From Mycobacterium sp. 1465703.0 (GTDB lineage Bacteria; Actinomycetota; Actinomycetes; Mycobacteriales; Mycobacteriaceae): a DNA stretch of 64,000 nucleotides. Shown here one piece after another: positions 13,883-20,700 of the stretch. The first letter of the stretch is position 1; each line of letters begins with the position of its first letter. The notes beneath the pieces are model-generated. The model searched no databases and had not been told where the DNA came from. It saw only the letters and a program-made list of their open reading frames with translations. The translations under genes were made by a program, and so were the position numbers. Location: assembly GCF_001672975.1 (NCBI RefSeq), contig NZ_LZKU01000017.1, forward strand, positions 61,291-125,290. The letters are read 5' to 3'.

Positions 13883-15097
13883 ATGAAAGACGCATTCCAC
13901 GGTAGCGCACGCCCTGAAAACGGTCTAGTTACCGCGTCCCGTGGATCCACCAGAACTGTCACCCATCCCTATCGCGGCAGCACCCCCGGCGCCCGCCGTC
14001 GCGGCACCGCCCGAACCGCGCCGTTATGGATTCAACGCGCAGGCAGCCACTGCTTCGATCGCGTCCCAAATATCGTTCTCGAACTCGACGTGATTTGGGC
14101 GGCCATTCCGTGCTGGAGTGGGCGGGCCCAACGGTGGGCGCAGACCACGGTGCCGATGGCGTACAAGCTGCGCTACGACACCCACGTACGTCCTGTCATG
14201 CCCAACAACCCCGTCAGCTTGAAAACCCTTGTCGCCGTGGCTGAGGCACGCGCGTCTTTCGCCGACCACCGCACCGGCCGCAACTGTCGACCCACCAACG
14301 CACGGCTGGCGCAAATGACCCACCTTTCCGTTCGGACAGTGCAGCGTGCCTCAACCGCACTGCGGCTCTTGGGAGTTGCGACCGAAGTCATGCGTGGTCG
14401 GCAGCGCACCAGGGCCGAACGATTCGCAAGCTGGCGGGTTGGGGACAAAGGCCGCGGATGGGCTTCGGTGTGGGCCTTACATGACTGCCGAATTCAAGCG
14501 CTGTCACCCCATCCCGGAGGGTCTCTTTTAACCCAAAAACCCTCCCGTAAATCATTACTTACGACCCGACACCGGCGCTCCGCCGCCGGTCGCAGCGCCG
14601 CTCCGCGGCGCACCAGCCTCGATCCCAAAGGGCTGGCTCTGGCAAACAATTGGGTACGTAGCGAGCAAAGCCCGCCGTGGGCACGTCGGTATCGGACCGG
14701 CACTCCCTGGGCGAAAGTCGTGACTAAGGCCGCCCAGCACGGTTGGACACCGCGGGATCTCAACACCCTCATCCAAGACTGGGTGGGCACCGGACATTGG
14801 ATACCCGACAGCCCGCATAAACCCATCGGATTACTCGGGGCCATACTCGCTGCACACGGTGACCTGACCAACCGCCCCTCGGCCTATGACGTCGCTCGAG
14901 AGCAAGAAGAGGTCGAGCAGGCACGGGCACGCATCACCGCGCAACTCGCCGCTCGCGAAGCTAACCGGAAGGCGCGCGAGGCCGGCCGAGAAGCGTTGTC
15001 GGGCCCGGGGCGCGCAGCGGCCCGAAAAGCCTTGGAGAAGATACGGGAACGAAGGCTGCGTCGTCGCTACGAGGAACCCTTTCGGGACAACCCATGA
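13883..15097 (+). CDS. Plasmid replication initiator-like protein
   Basis: A 404-residue basic protein. The ATG at 13883 follows GAAGGGA by six bases. About residues 120-190 form a winged helix-turn-helix (NARLAQMTHLSVRTVQRASTALRLLGVATEV) of the type seen in actinobacterial plasmid Rep proteins. The C-terminus is a charged helix rich in Arg and Glu (EQEEVEQARARITAQLAAREANRKAREAG). The paired palindromes upstream and the adjacent partition operons support a replication role. It ends in an ATGA overlap with the double-WhiB gene. The assignment rests on architecture and context rather than a family-defining motif. Confidence 0.6.
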   Translation: MKDAFHGSARPENGLVTASRGSTRTVTHPYRGSTPGARRRGTARTAPLWIQRAGSHCFDRVPNIVLELDVIWAAIPCWSGRAQRWAQTTVPMAYKLRYDTHVRPVMPNNPVSLKTLVAVAEARASFADHRTGRNCRPTNARLAQMTHLSVRTVQRASTALRLLGVATEVMRGRQRTRAERFASWRVGDKGRGWASVWALHDCRIQALSPHPGGSLLTQKPSRKSLLTTRHRRSAAGRSAAPRRTSLDPKGLALANNWVRSEQSPPWARRYRTGTPWAKVVTKAAQHGWTPRDLNTLIQDWVGTGHWIPDSPHKPIGLLGAILAAHGDLTNRPSAYDVAREQEEVEQARARITAQLAAREANRKAREAGREALSGPGRAAARKALEKIRERRLRRRYEEPFRDNP

Positions 15098-15786
15098 TGA
15101 GCCATTCCCCTGTTCGCCCCAAAGTGGCCTGCCGACGCGATCCCGAGCGGTGGTTTGACCGGCGGCGCCGTGGCGATGCACTGGCTGAATGCGTTCAGTG
15201 CCCGGTACGGTCGTGGTGTGCTCGAGAGGCGTTGAAATGTAAGGCTTCGTGGGGCGTTTGGGCAGGCGTCTGGATCGACGGACACCACCACGACGCGGCG
15301 CCCTACCTCGAGGCCATCGCCGAGAATCTCAGACTCGCCGACGGCGGCGATCCTGAGCCGGCAGAACCTCGCCCGCCGCTGCATGACGAAACCAACAGTC
15401 ACCACCCCCCGGCCTATACGCCACTAGTGAGGCCGGCGGCACCTATCGCCTCACGCTCGACGGCGGCGCGAGTGCTAGCGCGGAGCTCGGGTAGCTGTGA
15501 GGTTTTCACCGAGGGCTGCCACTACACCTTCGATCGTCTCGTGAGCCGCTGCCCCACCCGGGATCTGACTGAAAACCTCTCCCCCACAGAAGTGTTCGCC
15601 GCCTGCGTGGCATGCGCAGACACCATAACGTGCATGGAACCACGCCTGGCGCAATGGTCCGGTTATGTCATCGACGCCCACCGGGATCCAACGTCGATAC
15701 CGTTTCACTGGCGCGCATCGCGATGGGTGCTGTTTGAGCGCGACGGGTGGCTGACCGAGATCCGCACAGACGTGCAGACCGCCTGA
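15094..15786 (+). CDS. Double WhiB-like protein
   Basis: A 230-residue protein. The N-terminal domain has C-x19-C-x2-C-x5-C (ACRRDPERWF, CVQCPVRSWC) and a GVWAGV turn, a good WhiB domain. The C-terminal half has a second Cys cluster (CEVFTEGCHYTF, then CVACADTITC, again C-x2-C-x5-C) that looks like a diverged second WhiB domain. WhiB proteins normally have one domain and about 80-130 residues. The ATG overlaps the Rep stop codon (ATGA), so the two are translationally coupled and it may regulate replication or copy number. Confidence 0.7.
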   Translation: MMSHSPVRPKVACRRDPERWFDRRRRGDALAECVQCPVRSWCAREALKCKASWGVWAGVWIDGHHHDAAPYLEAIAENLRLADGGDPEPAEPRPPLHDETNSHHPPAYTPLVRPAAPIASRSTAARVLARSSGSCEVFTEGCHYTFDRLVSRCPTRDLTENLSPTEVFAACVACADTITCMEPRLAQWSGYVIDAHRDPTSIPFHWRASRWVLFERDGWLTEIRTDVQTA

Positions 15787-15791
15787 GAGCC

Positions 15792-15805
15792 TTAACCGCG
15801 GTTAA
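15792..15805. promoter_or_regulatory. Candidate parS palindrome 1
   Basis: TTAACCGCGGTTAA, a perfect palindrome overlapping the stop codon of the ribbon-helix-helix gene. Two more copies lie at 17840 and 18929. Confidence 0.55.
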
Positions 15806-16167
15806 TCTGCGGCACGCGCGGTCATCCGCCGTCGCCGCGCCAGTGCATCCTCCACGAGATCCGAAGCGAAATCCTGTGCGGTGAGCAGCACGTCGTCGCG
15901 TTTAGCATGCAACCACGCTTGACGAAGCCGCTCCGCGGTGGTCGATCGCAGCCTCAGAGTGCGAGGAGCCTTGACCTCGGCTGCGGCGGAAGGCCGACGA
16001 GCTGGTGGCAGCGCGCTTGCGGACACAGGGCTACTTTCCGTCACTGTGACGGCGAGTGGCGGTACATTCTGCTCAGGGGCCTCGGCGCTCTCAGCCGTCT
16101 TGCGGGTCTGGGCCCCAGCGGTCGACAACATGCCGAGTACGGCGGCGGCGGTGTCCTTTTTAGGCAT
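15802..16167 (-). CDS. Ribbon-helix-helix partition protein (ParB-equivalent)
   Basis: A 121-residue protein from the ATG at 16167, which overlaps the end of parA by eight bases and follows GAGGAAAG. A disordered N-terminus (MPKKDTAAAVLGMLSTAG) is followed by a C-terminal RHH-like segment (about 75-115: APRTLRLRSTTAERLRQAWLHAKRDDVL). This layout, a short flexible N-terminus and an RHH domain encoded just after parA, is that of small centromere-binding proteins such as pSM19035 omega. Its probable target is the octamer array at 16997-17500. An earlier in-frame start at 16200 is possible. Confidence 0.7.
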   Translation of the reverse strand: MPKKDTAAAVLGMLSTAGAQTRKTAESAEAPEQNVPPLAVTVTESSPVSASALPPARRPSAAAEVKAPRTLRLRSTTAERLRQAWLHAKRDDVLLTAQDFASDLVEDALARRRRMTARAAD

Positions 16168-16954
16168 GATGCTTTCCTCGATTCCGTCGGCCCTCATCAA
16201 CGAGGGTCATCACTTCAACGGTGAAACTCGCGTACGCATGCGCCAGATCCGGATCGGCTTCAAGGTCTCCAAGGACCACCTGGTCGGAGACCATCCGTTC
16301 GGCCGCAGTACGTTTCGGGATCATCGTTGCAAAAATGGGAAGCCCATCATTGCGCAGCGCATGCAGAGTTTCCCGACTGATCAGCGTTGACGGTTCGTAC
16401 TTCGTCAGCAGGACACCCAGGAAGGCTGCCGAAAGAACTCGATGCTGTCGCAGCGTAGAAGACCACTCCAAGAACATGTTGACCCCTCGCCTACCCCACT
16501 TGCTGGCATCGGTCGGCACGACGAACCAGTCAGCAGCGTTGAGCGCGGTGATCACCAGTTGGCCCAGGTTCGGCGAAAGGTCGAGCACGATCGCGTCGTA
16601 GTCCTGATACACCGGCGCAAGCGCCATCGCCAACTGCTCCTCGCGCCGGTGCATCGTCACGAGCTCCTGGTCCAATTTGGCGACAGCAAGGGTGGAGGGA
16701 ACGAGATCGAGATTCTCCAAGCGCGTCTTACGCCGGACCTTATCGATCGGTGCGCCCTCGCCGATCAAGTCATAGATGTCGAACTCGACGTCGTCGTCGG
16801 GGTCGAACATCGACGTCGAATTGCCTTGAGGGTCACAGTCGGTGAGCAAGGTGCGCCACCCGGCTTGTGCCAGGCCGGCGGCAAGGTTCACTGCGGTGAA
16901 GGACTTCCCTACCCCGCCCTTGTGATTAGCGATCGCAATCACTTCCGCTTTCAC
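16160..16954 (-). CDS. parA: ParA-type partition ATPase, system 1
   Basis: A 264-residue protein. Deviant Walker A NHKGGVGKS at about 11-19, then DCDPQGN and LDLSPNLG, are standard ParA/Soj motifs. The GTG at 16954 has AAAGGAG eight bases upstream. The longer frame to 17137 only reads through the octamer array. It lacks the N-terminal HTH of type Ia ParA, so it is a small type Ib-like enzyme, consistent with its RHH partner. It should drive segregation by cycling on the nucleoid. The array directly upstream probably serves as both centromere and operator. Confidence 0.9.
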   Translation of the reverse strand: MKAEVIAIANHKGGVGKSFTAVNLAAGLAQAGWRTLLTDCDPQGNSTSMFDPDDDVEFDIYDLIGEGAPIDKVRRKTRLENLDLVPSTLAVAKLDQELVTMHRREEQLAMALAPVYQDYDAIVLDLSPNLGQLVITALNAADWFVVPTDASKWGRRGVNMFLEWSSTLRQHRVLSAAFLGVLLTKYEPSTLISRETLHALRNDGLPIFATMIPKRTAAERMVSDQVVLGDLEADPDLAHAYASFTVEVMTLVDEGRRNRGKHHA

Positions 16955-16996
16955 GATAATCACTCCTTTAACATTCGCCTCATCTATTACACCAAA

Positions 16997-17500
16997 GTGA
17001 CCATGTGTCTGGGTGATCTGGCGATGGCGTGTCGGCGTGATGTGATCGCTGGGTGATGACGTGACGGGATGACCCCGTGGCGAGGTGACGGCGTCATCGA
17101 GTGACGTCGCGACCAGGTGATCGTGTTTTCCGGTCATTCGGTCATCTGGTCATCCGGTGATGCGGTGATGCGGTGATGCGGTGAGGAAATCATCGAATCA
17201 CCGAGTCACCGAGTTGCGTGGTGCTTCGGAGATGCGGTGACTGTGTCACTGGATGATCAAGCGATCCAGTGATCGGGGTGCAGGGTGATCGAGTCGCGTA
17301 GTGATGAGGCGATCGGGCGATTCAGTGCCTGTGTGATTCCATCACCCGATCGCTGCATCACCAAGTGCGGTCGTGATTCACTCACATAGTGATCGACTGA
17401 CACGGTGATTCGATGATGGTGCGGCGCTGCGATTTGATCTTCTGGTGATATTGCGATGTGGTGATCGAGTGACCCGATCATCCGGTGATGGAGTATCGCC
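16997..17500. repeat. Array of about 62 contiguous octamers, putative partition centromere
   Basis: Read from 16997 in steps of eight, nearly every unit fits R-T-S-A-Y plus three variable bases, for example GTGATGCG three times from 17157, ATCACCGA at 17197 and GTGATCGA at 17285, 17389 and 17461. By my count 37 of 62 units fit the core fully and most of the rest differ at one position; the chance frequency is about 1 in 128. The core consensus is self-complementary, so a unit may be read in either direction. The array begins 43 bp upstream of the parA start. The pSM19035 omega protein binds contiguous heptads (WATCACW); this is an analogous but longer, 8-bp-periodic array. Confidence 0.9.
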
Positions 17501-17864
17501 TAGAGCGCGCGGAACAGATAAGCCGCACCCCGAGACCACCCGCTGAAGATCGGCGTCACCGTGACGAAAGCCGTCCAATCGGGGCTGCCCACAGACTCTG
17601 CGGCTTGGGGCCGTGACGGCGCACGCCGGGTCGACAATGGGGGAGTGGTGCTCGATCGGCCTTGGCCTGCTGGCTCTGAGCCGCTGCACGAGTGGGCCGC
17701 CCGCTGGGCTCATTGGGACGGGGAGTGATACGGCGTAACGCCGATCGACCGCCGGTTCGCTACTCATGGGCTGGGCACCTAACCGCCTGGCCGGCGTAGG
17801 AATCCGGCTGACATCCGGGAGGTATGAGACTGCTGCGTCTTAACCGCGGTTAAGACGGCCGCCA
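17501..17864. other. Intergenic region with one candidate parS
   Basis: No gene was seen between the octamer array and the 17865 gene. It contains the 20-bp palindrome at 17837. Confidence 0.5.
17837..17856. promoter_or_regulatory. Candidate parS palindrome 2
   Basis: GTCTTAACCGCGGTTAAGAC, a perfect 20-bp palindrome containing the same TTAACCGCGGTTAA core as the sites at 15792 and 18929. Confidence 0.6.
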
Positions 17865-18725: not shown

Positions 18726-19147
18726 CCTGTCAGTATTTCACTGACGCATAGGGCGGCCGGGTAACGACATCCGTGTGTTGTTTACCGCATGAGAGCCGAG
18801 CAGATCCTGAGTTGCAGCAGCGCATCCCGACTTCCTGGAAAGCTGAATCCGTTGTGCCCATGGCAGCTTCGGCGTGAAAGATCAAGCGAACGTCACCGCC
18901 GTGTGGGGCTCGGACCGAACCTGCGTACTTAACCGCGGTTAAGTCCGCAGTCCCGGAAGGTGATCGTTGCGGTCGGCGCCTTAGCGGTCCGATCTCGATG
19001 GGCTGATGAAAAGGGGCCGTTGGCTCTCTGAGGCAATGAGATTGGTTCCGGCGTGTCCACCCGACACGATGGGATGCGGCCCCGTAGACTGCCGCTGTCT
19101 CATCCGAAGTACCCCGAATCGCGGGGGAAGCATACGGAAGGCCAGTT
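18726..19147. other. Intergenic region upstream of parA2
   Basis: No gene was seen. It holds the third TTAACCGCGGTTAA palindrome about 200 bp before the second parA, a position usual for a parS or operator. Confidence 0.5.
18927..18944. promoter_or_regulatory. Candidate parS palindrome 3
   Basis: ACTTAACCGCGGTTAAGT, a perfect 18-bp palindrome with the shared 14-bp core at 18929-18942, upstream of parA2-parB2. Confidence 0.6.
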
Positions 19148-19861
19148 ATGGCTGTTCACGTCGTTCTCAACCAGAAGGGCGGCGTCGGCAAGAGCACGAT
19201 CGCCGTCAATTTAGCCGCGGTCACCGCCGACGTCCTCAATCACGATGACGACCCGAACTCAAGCTCACCCGTCGCGGCGGTCTCCGTCGACCCGCAAGGC
19301 TCGGCAGTGTGGTGGGCCGCTCGTATCGACGATCTTCCTTTTCATATCGTTCAGGCCCACGAAGATATTGACGGCCTTAAGCGCCTAGGTGAGCTTCCCG
19401 GTATCCAGCATGTCTACGTTGACACTCCCGGCTGGATCGACTTGGACTCGGGCAACGGCACTGCCGATCCGCTAGGGCGCGGTCCCGCCGCCGATGCCCT
19501 GCGAGTGGTCCTCGACGTCGCTGACTCGGTCATTGTTCCGATCGAAACCGAGCCGCTGAGTTTCGACCCGACCGCCCGCACCATCAACAAGGTGATTGCG
19601 CCCCGGGGGATTCCCTACCTCGTGGTGATCAATAACTGGGACCCGCGCGACGGCATGCACGATCTCAACGAGACAAAAGAATTCATCAGAGCTAACGGTT
19701 GGCCGTTGGCCCACACCGTGATTCGTCACTACAAACTGCACGCGCGGGCCAGCGCCGACGGGCAGGTGGTGACCGAATATCCACTGAATCGTGTTGCGCT
19801 GCAGGCACGGGAAGACTTCTACAAGTTTGCGCTGGAGCTCAACGTCGGAGGTGGGCACTGA
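19148..19861 (+). CDS. parA: ParA-type partition ATPase, system 2
   Basis: A 237-residue protein with QKGGVGKST at about 9-17, VSVDPQGS (about 47-54) and VDTPGW (about 96). GGAAGG precedes the ATG. It is a small ParA without an N-terminal DNA-binding domain. A short insertion (NHDDDPNSSS, about 31-40) follows the first helix. Its stop overlaps the start of parB2 (TGATG). Its sequence and its partner differ from those of the parA at 16160, so the replicon carries two distinct partition systems. Confidence 0.9.
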   Translation: MAVHVVLNQKGGVGKSTIAVNLAAVTADVLNHDDDPNSSSPVAAVSVDPQGSAVWWAARIDDLPFHIVQAHEDIDGLKRLGELPGIQHVYVDTPGWIDLDSGNGTADPLGRGPAADALRVVLDVADSVIVPIETEPLSFDPTARTINKVIAPRGIPYLVVINNWDPRDGMHDLNETKEFIRANGWPLAHTVIRHYKLHARASADGQVVTEYPLNRVALQAREDFYKFALELNVGGGH

Positions 19862-20700
19862 TGGCACGCGGGCAGCGCACCAACCTCGCCTCGCTCGCCA
19901 ACCGGGTGGGCGACAACTCACCGGTCGAGCAGATGACCCCGATGCACGGTCGCACCGCATTGCTGACAGATCTCACACCCAATCCGCGTAACCCGCGCGA
20001 TGACGTCGGCGATCTTTCCGATCTCGAATCCATCACCGACATGCAGCTTCAACCCGCCGTCGTGGTCACCTCGAGTGCCTATCTGAGGTTGTATCCCGAA
20101 GACACGATTACGACACGCTTTGTGGTGGTCAACGGATGCCGGCGTCTGGCTGCCGCACACAAGTACGGCCGCACTGATCTGGCCATTGTCGTCAACGACG
20201 AGATCGCCCGCGACCGCGTCACGCTGATCTCAGCATCGATTGCCGAGAACGTTGATCGGCAGGACTTCGATGTCATCGAGGAAGCCAAAGCCGTGGAATC
20301 CCTCGTGCAGGAGTGCGGCAGCGGGGTAGAGGCAGCTAACCGGCTCCGCAAGACCCAAGCCTGGGTATCACAGCGGCGCGCGTTACTGGAACTCGCACCA
20401 CAACTGCAAACCGCGTTGCGCCGAGGCGAATTGGCGATCCGGGAAGCTCGCACCTTGGCGCGCGTGCCCCTCGAGCAGCAAGTCGCACGCTGGCAGGCTG
20501 CACAAGAGAAAAAGAACAATGACGGCAAGCAGCACGGCGCACCCGACAAGCGCTTCACCTCGTCTCGGGTTATCGCCAACGCGCTCAATGAATTCGAATC
20601 GAAACCTCAACTGCTCGCGGACGCCCTTCGCACTCACTTGGGCGAAGATGGGGTGAAGACACTCGTGGCCGTGCTCTCCGATGCGGCCGCGGCGGTGTAG
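19861..20700 (+). CDS. parB: ParB/Spo0J-type partition protein, system 2
   Basis: A 279-residue protein. The ParB/Srx N-terminal fold is visible: LTPNPRNPRDDV (about 37-48), FVVVNGCRRLAAAHKYG (about 83-99, in place of GERRxxA), and ASIAENVDRQDFDVIEEAKAVESLV, the ENxQR-like box. The HTH segment follows (ANRLRKTQAWVSQRRALLEL). As a CTP-dependent clamp of the ParB family it should load at a palindromic parS. The TTAACCGCGGTTAA copies nearby are the best candidates. The start at 19861 overlaps the parA2 stop by one base. Confidence 0.85.
   Translation: MARGQRTNLASLANRVGDNSPVEQMTPMHGRTALLTDLTPNPRNPRDDVGDLSDLESITDMQLQPAVVVTSSAYLRLYPEDTITTRFVVVNGCRRLAAAHKYGRTDLAIVVNDEIARDRVTLISASIAENVDRQDFDVIEEAKAVESLVQECGSGVEAANRLRKTQAWVSQRRALLELAPQLQTALRRGELAIREARTLARVPLEQQVARWQAAQEKKNNDGKQHGAPDKRFTSSRVIANALNEFESKPQLLADALRTHLGEDGVKTLVAVLSDAAAAV

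What the first reader, a model, noticed from the sequence alone, without database searches (positions are those of the whole stretch)
16997..17500. About 62 contiguous 8-bp units upstream of a ParA/RHH operon: a giant partition centromere
Read directly: stepping by eight from 16997, almost every unit begins R-T-S-A-Y, with no loss of phase over about 500 bp. The core is self-complementary. Known: omega-type RHH proteins of pSM19035 bind contiguous 7-bp units as both centromere and operator, in arrays of roughly 7-10 units. Inference: the RHH protein at 15802 binds this array, which would be a longer, octameric version, perhaps wrapped as one large filament. I know of no described array of this size and period.
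Basis: partly seen in the sequence, partly recalled or inferred. Interest (0 to 1): 0.93.

Follow-up and report, generated by a model that had tools for sequence, protein, structure and literature searches.

The report
Giant octamer centromere of mycobacterial plasmids
Next to a plasmid-segregation gene lies an unbroken run of 62 degenerate 8-base units, and the same kind of run (41 to 126 units) sits at the same place in all 22 other mycobacterial loci examined that keep the gene pair; it is likely the plasmid's centromere, predicted to be coated by dozens of copies of the small protein encoded beside it.

Summary
Window 16997-17494 is an uninterrupted 8-bp array of 62 full units (58 distinct octamers); lag-8 identity is 0.51 against 0.27 in shuffles (z 11.6, 0 of 1000). 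The unit is the asymmetric GTGAY/RTCAC in both orientations at a fixed 8-bp step, not a self-complementary RTSAY. Of 26 loci examined (window included), 23 keep parA and the small downstream gene, and 23 of 23 carry the array 22-96 bp upstream of parA (41-126 units, median 64), including pMAH135; pRAW matches L004. Arrays share period and core but little sequence. The array stays where the neighbouring rep gene is replaced, and is absent from the one locus where the parA/small-gene pair is only a remnant. Each unit holds 4.8 bits; about five contiguous units stand out from the 125-kb contig, which predicts cooperative reading. Best explanation: centromere and operator of a type-I partition system, an octameric giant version of pSM19035 omega/parS. 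Untested: binding, stability, and the RHH fold (no credible profile or fold match). Phage RedRock is a small 8-bp precedent. New variant of a known kind.

The parts
16997..17494 (.). Contiguous array of 62 full octamers, unit GTGAY(N3) or RTCAC(N3), mixed orientation, constant 8-bp phase; likely centromere (parS-like) and operator
   Evidence: autocorrelation and HMM; same place in 23 of 23 parA1 loci, window included; binding not tested
16160..16954 (-). parA1: ParA-family Walker ATPase, 264 aa, GTG start after AAAGGAG; no N-terminal HTH extension
   Evidence: Pfam AAA_31 4.2e-43, phrog_164 ParA-like 1.7e-49; 74-91% identical copies in 22 other loci
15802..16167 (-). Candidate centromere-binding protein, 121 aa, overlaps the 3' end of parA1; conserved N-terminal MPKKDTAAAVLGMLSTAGAQTR-like block and C-terminal R-T-x-R-L-R block followed by helix-forming sequence; RHH-like by pattern only
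   Evidence: 24 of 297 genomes of the genus have a match; alignments A1, A3; no Pfam/NCBIfam match, no credible PHROG, PDB or Foldseek match
16955..16996 (-). parA1 leader between start codon and array: ribosome-binding site and a possible -10 (by eye); an upstream -35 would fall in the first array units
   Evidence: sequence reading; the consensus scan found no sigma-70-type promoter, so the promoter is inferred
19148..19861 (+). parA2 of a second, adjacent partition system (context)
   Evidence: Pfam CbiA/AAA_31; found near the array in 21 of 23 loci
19864..20700 (+). HTH-type ParB of the second system (context)
   Evidence: Pfam HTH_ParB 1.3e-11; found in 20 of 23 loci
15792..15805 (.). Palindrome TTAACCGCGGTTAA, copy 1 of 3; candidate parS of the second (HTH-ParB) system, not of the array system
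   Evidence: three copies in the window (none more with one mismatch), and the same three are the only exact copies in the 5.9-Mb assembly
17840..17853 (.). Palindrome TTAACCGCGGTTAA, copy 2 of 3
18929..18942 (.). Palindrome TTAACCGCGGTTAA, copy 3 of 3

Best explanation
The array is likely the centromere and, at its parA-proximal end, the operator of the parA1 partition operon: a run of 62 contiguous octamers that would be bound by the 15802 protein, predicted at one dimer per octamer in either orientation. Single units are too weak to be specific (4.8 bits), so binding would be cooperative over about five or more neighbours in strict 8-bp register. The result would be one long nucleoprotein filament of up to about 62 dimers, which presents the N-terminal tails to nucleoid-bound ParA1-ATP and stimulates its ATPase to drive plasmid segregation; the filament end nearest parA1 would shut the parA1 promoter. 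Shown: array, phase, mixed orientation, linkage, core-over-spacer constraint. Inferred: binding, stoichiometry, filament, repression, segregation.
For: Periodicity, phase and uniqueness on the contig. Of 26 loci examined (window included), 23 keep parA1 plus the small gene, and 23 of 23 have a period-8 array whose first base lies 22-96 bp upstream of the parA1 start codon: 41-126 units, lag-8 z 6-19 against mononucleotide shuffles, 23 phase slips in 1586 units. The HMM gave 0 segments in 250,662 bp of shuffled loci (11 loci, 3 shuffles each). Substitutions fall less often in the core than in the spacer: 19/358 vs 25/211 (L038/L040) and 28/253 vs 36/147 (L006/L051), pooled Fisher p 1.2e-5. The L038/L040 arrays differ at 44 of 569 positions with no indel. 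The rep gene of the window is not found in L004-L006 but the array is there. In L053 rep, parA2 and parB2 are kept, parA1 is gone, the small gene is a 34-residue remnant, and no array is found in the 7,001 bp fetched. With a matrix from the 22 other arrays, 58 of 59 five-unit windows of this array beat every site elsewhere on both strands of the 125-kb contig, against 0 of 63 single units. Precedent: omega/pSM19035 needs four or more contiguous units and binds both orientations (PMC9499535 abstract and passages). The small protein's block R-T-x-R-L-R is nearly invariant in 21 aligned copies.
Against: No binding, repression or stability data. The RHH fold was not confirmed: no Pfam or NCBIfam match for the window's protein; over 30 homologues only weak unrelated Pfam hits; the best PDB profile hit is a CopG/Arc/MetJ-family chimera at E 0.16 that aligns mainly to the linker; best PHROG E 0.14; profile comparison with RedRock ParB and four other partner proteins negative; AlphaFold models lack the strand. 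An HTH-ParB system with its own likely parS lies beside it, so the array system may not be the main segregation system. L002 shows 6 phase slips, so register is not absolute. In the L006/L051 alignment some gaps (53, 9, 1, 49 bp) are not multiples of 8, though 400 of 405 aligned positions are in phase. The HMM was trained on these same loci; the lag-8 statistics use its boundaries but not its emissions. The absence of the array in L053 is a single case. Octamer arrays are not a general trait of such systems: of 10 parA loci of other taxa, 1 had a period-8/16 array and 1 a period-9/18 array.
Confidence: 0.85

Rival explanations
1. Replication origin: the octamers are iterons bound by the neighbouring Rep protein, and the parA1 linkage is only backbone synteny.
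For: The array lies about 1.9 kb from a rep gene in the window, L002 and L003; plasmid origins often carry repeats.
Against: The rep homologue is not found in L004, L005 and L006, which carry 3.7-4 kb on that side, yet the array is there. In L053 rep is kept (73%) and no array is found. Orientation is mixed with no pattern at lags 1-8, unlike direct-repeat iterons. The pMAH135 paper places a single pair of 14-bp iterons upstream of repA instead (PMC4324632, passages).
Confidence: 0.05
2. Mainly an operator: the array is an oversized regulatory site for parA1, and segregation is carried by the second system (parA2, HTH-ParB, TTAACCGCGGTTAA).
For: The array begins 22-96 bp from the parA1 start in 23 of 23 loci; parA2 is adjacent in 21 of 23; dual systems in which only one is needed in the laboratory are known (SCP1, PMC13245405, abstract and passages).
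Against: 41-126 units far exceed what an operator would seem to need; parA1 and the small gene are kept together with the array; omega-type sites serve both roles.
Confidence: 0.07
3. Neutral tandem-repeat expansion (microsatellite) with no bound protein.
For: RTSAYx7 matches elsewhere in bacterial and viral contigs are mostly short octamer microsatellites; some arrays here contain local block duplications (L006).
Against: 58 distinct octamers among 62, mixed orientation, core constrained over spacer, and recurrence at one site in 23 loci with little shared sequence; the rows that I could see are mostly one or a few octamers in one orientation, mostly 7-20 units.
Confidence: 0.02

Closest known systems
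pSM19035 delta/omega/parS (type I, RHH-ParB; Streptococcus pyogenes)
   Same: Contiguous short asymmetric units, one dimer per unit (predicted here), both orientations, overlapping promoters of the partition genes; core ATCAC as in WATCACW (PMC9499535 passages); small ParA
   Different: Period 8 not 7; 41-126 units in one block rather than 7-10 per site at six sites; core degenerate (GTGAY/RTCAC exact in 737 of 1586 units); one operon parA1-small gene; no detectable sequence relation between the small protein and an RHH protein
Mycobacteriophage RedRock parABS (parS-L, parS-R)
   Same: Contiguous 8-bp repeats beside a small parA and an 89-aa ParB that matches the Arc-like phrog_2639 (PMC7157519 passages); mycobacterial host
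   Different: Two sites of eight direct repeats with another core; no sequence relation found to the 15802 protein
pCXC100 ParAB-parS (Leifsonia xyli subsp. cynodontis)
   Same: Actinobacterial type Ib plasmid system with a repeat centromere upstream
   Different: A review seen in passages says only direct repeats (PMC5016525); the primary paper PMC3074162 is not held, so unit size and number were not checked
pMK12478 ParA (MKAN_RS28325) and MKAN_RS29045, Mycobacterium kansasii
   Same: Plasmid with a related rep (48% identical) whose 828-bp intergenic region upstream of parA, and the gene after parA, scored growth-defective in Tn-seq (PMC10470612 passages); the region shows a degenerate period of 12 (lag-12 z 5.4)
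   Different: Different ParA and partner, period 12, no octamer array; that parA itself scored non-essential there; functional hint by analogy only

Membership tests
Type I RHH-ParB (type Ib) partition system | Small ParA-family Walker ATPase without N-terminal HTH domain | tested here: met
   264 aa, AAA_31 from residue 5; phrog_164
Type I RHH-ParB (type Ib) partition system | Small CBP gene directly downstream in the same operon | tested here: met
   121-aa ORF overlapping the parA1 end; both genes present in 23 of 26 loci examined
Type I RHH-ParB (type Ib) partition system | CBP has a ribbon-helix-helix fold | tested here: inconclusive
   Pattern only (R-T-x-R-L-R, then helix-forming sequence); no Pfam or NCBIfam match, no credible PHROG or PDB match, AF2 single helix, Foldseek 0 hits
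Type I RHH-ParB (type Ib) partition system | Repeat centromere upstream of the operon | tested here: met
   Repeat array upstream in 23 of 23 loci; that it acts as centromere is not tested
pSM19035 omega-type parS | Contiguous units of 7 bp, consensus WATCACW | tested here: not met
   Period is 8 in all 23; core GTGAY/RTCAC shares ATCAC but the three spacer positions carry 0.04-0.10 bits
pSM19035 omega-type parS | 7-10 units per site | tested here: not met
   41-126 units
pSM19035 omega-type parS | Units in both orientations | tested here: met
   915 G-centred and 571 C-centred of 1586 units; no orientation pattern at lags 1-8
pSM19035 omega-type parS | One RHH dimer per unit, cooperative, represses own promoter | not testable with these tools
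   needs purified protein
Rep-bound iteron origin | Array linked to its rep gene | tested here: not met
   array without this rep in L004-L006; rep without array in L053
HTH-ParB parS | Isolated palindromes bound by CTPase ParB | tested here: not met
   array units are asymmetric and contiguous; the palindromes TTAACCGCGGTTAA go with the second system by position

The most novel reading that the evidence does not exclude
A filament-scale centromere in which phase, not sequence, is the conserved signal: 41-126 low-information octamers are read collectively by one continuous protein spiral of about four dimers per turn around the DNA (4 x 8 = 32 bp, about three DNA turns), 110-340 nm long, long enough to engage many ParA dimers at once. 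No unit is specific; only the register is. This would be the longest contiguous CBP array described and a family trait of mycobacterial pRAW/pMAH135-type plasmids.
Probability: 0.5. Interest if true: 0.85.

Novelty: new variant of a known kind. Interest (0 to 1): 0.74.

Why it matters
If right, it gives plasmid biology a centromere with four to eighteen times as many units as an omega site, and a natural series from 41 to 126 units on which the question 'how many CBP dimers does segregation need, and why' can be tested directly. It also names the likely centromere of the conjugative plasmid pRAW (array identical to L004 over 368 of 368 bp) and of pMAH135, whose published account mentions parA and parB genes but, in the passages seen, no centromere. 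It suggests that DNA specificity can be carried by register over many 4.8-bit sites.

Tried and rejected
Structure route: AF2 on A1 (pTM 0.28) and on the C-terminal 60 residues (mean pLDDT 88, pTM 0.52, one continuous helix); Foldseek and VIA-align returned nothing. Profile search of the PDB and hhalign against RedRock ParB and four other partner proteins gave no link. The RHH call is therefore left as inference.

The rows that I could see in the cut output are mostly short same-orientation octamer microsatellites, a few mixed (L063, L107, L150, L161, L221; not followed). The pattern would catch only 5 of the 23 known arrays (run of 7 or more RTSAY), so it says little about distribution.

Wider search: the CBP alignment matched 3 of 401 genomes of the family draw, all in the window's genus, of 31 genera; parA1 matched 3 of 397 genomes of the order draw at 1e-40, one in another genus (50% identical) with no octamer array. 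Ten parA loci of other taxa (L236-L245) were checked, with RedRock as yardstick; 9 of these were picked by hand from 60 listed of 688 plasmid records.

Rows dropped before the '23 of 23' count: L053 (parA1 absent, 34-residue CBP remnant), L054 (weak match with an in-frame stop; neither gene found) and L055 (contig ends at the CBP). L246 (pMMRN) was not counted because the stretch begins inside parA. L005 and L046 are near-identical (99.4%), so distinct arrays number 22; that pair was too similar for the substitution count. L257 (pRAW) equals L004 and was not counted again.

Published functional data: the Tn-seq growth-defect region of pMK12478 looked at first like this array; it is upstream of another parA with period 12, so it is analogy, not evidence.

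Literature: searches (open-licence PMC only, lists capped at 10-30 rows) listed no paper whose title or opening abstract reports an octamer array in mycobacterial plasmids; the primary omega-DNA and pCXC100 structure papers are not held.

Full report
What is there. The stretch 16997-17494 is a contiguous array of 62 full octamers. Lag-8 identity is 0.508 against 0.266 in 1000 dinucleotide-preserving shuffles (z 11.6), with harmonics at 16-40. A cyclic 8-state HMM finds it as one segment with no phase slip, and nothing else of 40 bp or more in the 64-kb window or in the 125,290-bp contig. Tandem Repeats Finder sees only fragments of it, as expected with 58 distinct octamers among 62.

The unit. 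In the 1524 units of the 22 other arrays the information content against the contig's composition is 0.85, 1.28, 0.41, 1.32 and 0.76 bits at positions 1-5 and at most 0.10 at positions 6-8, 4.8 bits in all. Over all 1586 units, position 1 is G in 816 of 915 G-centred units, and position 5 is C in 497 of 571 C-centred units. The unit is therefore asymmetric, GTGAY or its complement RTCAC; 737 of 1586 units are exact. Orientation shows no pattern at lags 1-8. ATCAC is also the core of the omega heptad WATCACW (PMC9499535).

Neighbours. parA1 (16160-16954, minus) is a small ParA. The gene that overlaps its end (15802-16167) encodes 121 aa with a conserved N-terminal block, a variable linker, and a C-terminal block R-T-x-R-L-R followed by helix-forming sequence. 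This resembles a ribbon-helix-helix protein with an ATPase-stimulating tail, but the window's protein matches no Pfam or NCBIfam family and has no credible PHROG or PDB match; the nearest PDB profile hit, a CopG/Arc/MetJ-family chimera at E 0.16, aligns mainly to the linker. The AlphaFold models are uninformative. On the other side of the array lies a second system, parA2 (19148-19861) and an HTH ParB (19864-20700), with three copies of TTAACCGCGGTTAA, the only three exact copies in the 5.9-Mb assembly.

Relatives. The small gene matched 24 of 297 genomes of the window's genus; three of these genomes hold contigs of the same length as named Mycobacterium plasmid records (L002 M. riyadhense, L005 M. 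paragordonae, L006 M. gordonae) and were read from those. With two more named plasmids (L003 pMAH135, L004 M. marinum) 26 loci were examined, window included. In 23 loci parA1 (74-91% identical in the 22 relatives) and the small gene are both present. All 23 carry the array, its first base 22-96 bp upstream of the parA1 start codon, 41-126 full units (median 64), lag-8 z 6-19, with 23 phase slips in total, 14 of them a single extra base. L002-L006 had shown lag 8 as the strongest or joint strongest short lag before any HMM was trained (in L004 lag 9 ties elsewhere in the locus). Between arrays, alignable sequence is short except in close pairs. In the two usable pairs the core changes less than the spacer (19/358 vs 25/211; 28/253 vs 36/147; pooled p 1.2e-5), and the 569-bp pair with 44 substitutions has no indel. 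In the other pair 400 of 405 aligned positions are in phase; gaps include 48 and 8 bp, but also 53, 9, 1 and 49 bp where the alignment is ambiguous. pRAW of M. marinum E11 has the same array as L004 over 368 of 368 bp.

What the array belongs to. The rep gene of the window is found at 77-78% identity in L002 and L003 and not in L004-L006, although the array is there. In L053 rep (73%), parA2 (84%) and parB2 (69%) are kept, parA1 is missing, the small gene is a 34-residue remnant, and no array is found in 7,001 bp. This is one natural deletion and fits co-loss of array and operon. parA2 was found beside the array in 21 of 23 loci and parB2 in 20; in the others the fetched stretch may end before them. 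A parA 50% identical in another genus has no octamer array.

How it would work. With a matrix from the other 22 arrays, 0 of 63 single units and 4 of 62 two-unit windows of this array exceed the best site elsewhere on either strand of the contig. This rises to 40 of 61 for three units, 48 of 60 for four, 58 of 59 for five and 58 of 58 for six. Specific recognition would therefore have to be collective, and that requires register, which is what the sequence conserves. For omega, four or more contiguous units are needed to activate ParA fully, and gaps prevent it (PMC9499535, abstract and passages). The inference is one dimer per octamer, cooperative, in either orientation. Four octamers span 32 bp, close to three DNA turns, so every fourth dimer would face about the same side (arithmetic, not a test). 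The array reaches to 22-96 bp from parA1, so the proximal units would also repress the operon; no promoter was found by the consensus scan and a -10 is only suggested by eye.

Comparison. It works like omega/parS in position, contiguity, mixed orientation and core. It is not a member of that site class by period or unit number, and RHH membership is unproven. RedRock provides 8-bp parS units, eight per site, with an Arc-like ParB (PMC7157519 passages). Large arrays of other period exist upstream of parA elsewhere: 34.7 copies of an 18-bp (2 x 9) unit in Haliscomenobacter pHALHY02 and 14.6 copies of a 16-bp (2 x 8) unit in a Methanosarcina plasmid. In M. kansasii pMK12478 an 828-bp region upstream of another parA, scored growth-defective in Tn-seq (PMC10470612 passages; the parA itself was scored non-essential), has a degenerate period of 12. 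So the claim of 'longest described' is limited to what I could read.

Verdict. Confirmed observation, partly supported interpretation, new variant of a known kind. What is new here, as far as the searches reach: the unit, the conservation over 23 loci, the size range, the collective-information argument, and the likely centromere of pRAW- and pMAH135-type plasmids.

Noticed in passing
window 15792-15805, 17840-17853, 18929-18942: Three copies of the palindrome TTAACCGCGGTTAA around parA2/HTH-ParB, the only three exact copies in the assembly; TTTACCGCGGTAAA at the matching place in M. marinum, M. paragordonae and M. gordonae plasmids: likely parS of the second system.
   Followed up: partly
L241 1717-2341 (Haliscomenobacter hydrossis pHALHY02): 34.7 copies of an 18-bp unit (2 x 9) upstream of a parA with a 182-aa partner: a large array with another period in Bacteroidota.
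   Followed up: partly
L239 1952-2184 (Methanosarcina sp. Kolksee plasmid): 14.6 copies of a 16-bp unit (2 x 8) upstream of parA and a 119-aa partner gene in an archaeal plasmid.
   Followed up: partly
L260 10836-11663 (M. kansasii pMK12478): Intergenic region reported as growth-defective in Tn-seq (PMC10470612) has a degenerate 12-bp period (lag-12 z 5.4) upstream of another parA.
   Followed up: partly
   Followed up: no
L107 5782-6101 (Burkholderia stagnalis): About 40 RTSAY-like octamer units, mostly one orientation, 18 distinct; not a simple microsatellite; neighbours not examined.
   Followed up: no
L206 13009-13080 (IMG/VR contig): Nine RTSAY-like octamers about 40 bp from a parA-like reading frame (40% identical, E 1e-5) in a viral contig.
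   Followed up: no
window 15094-15786: WhiB-like gene between rep and the partition operon, found in 16 of the 23 array loci (several stretches are short on that side); possible regulator of the backbone.
   Followed up: no
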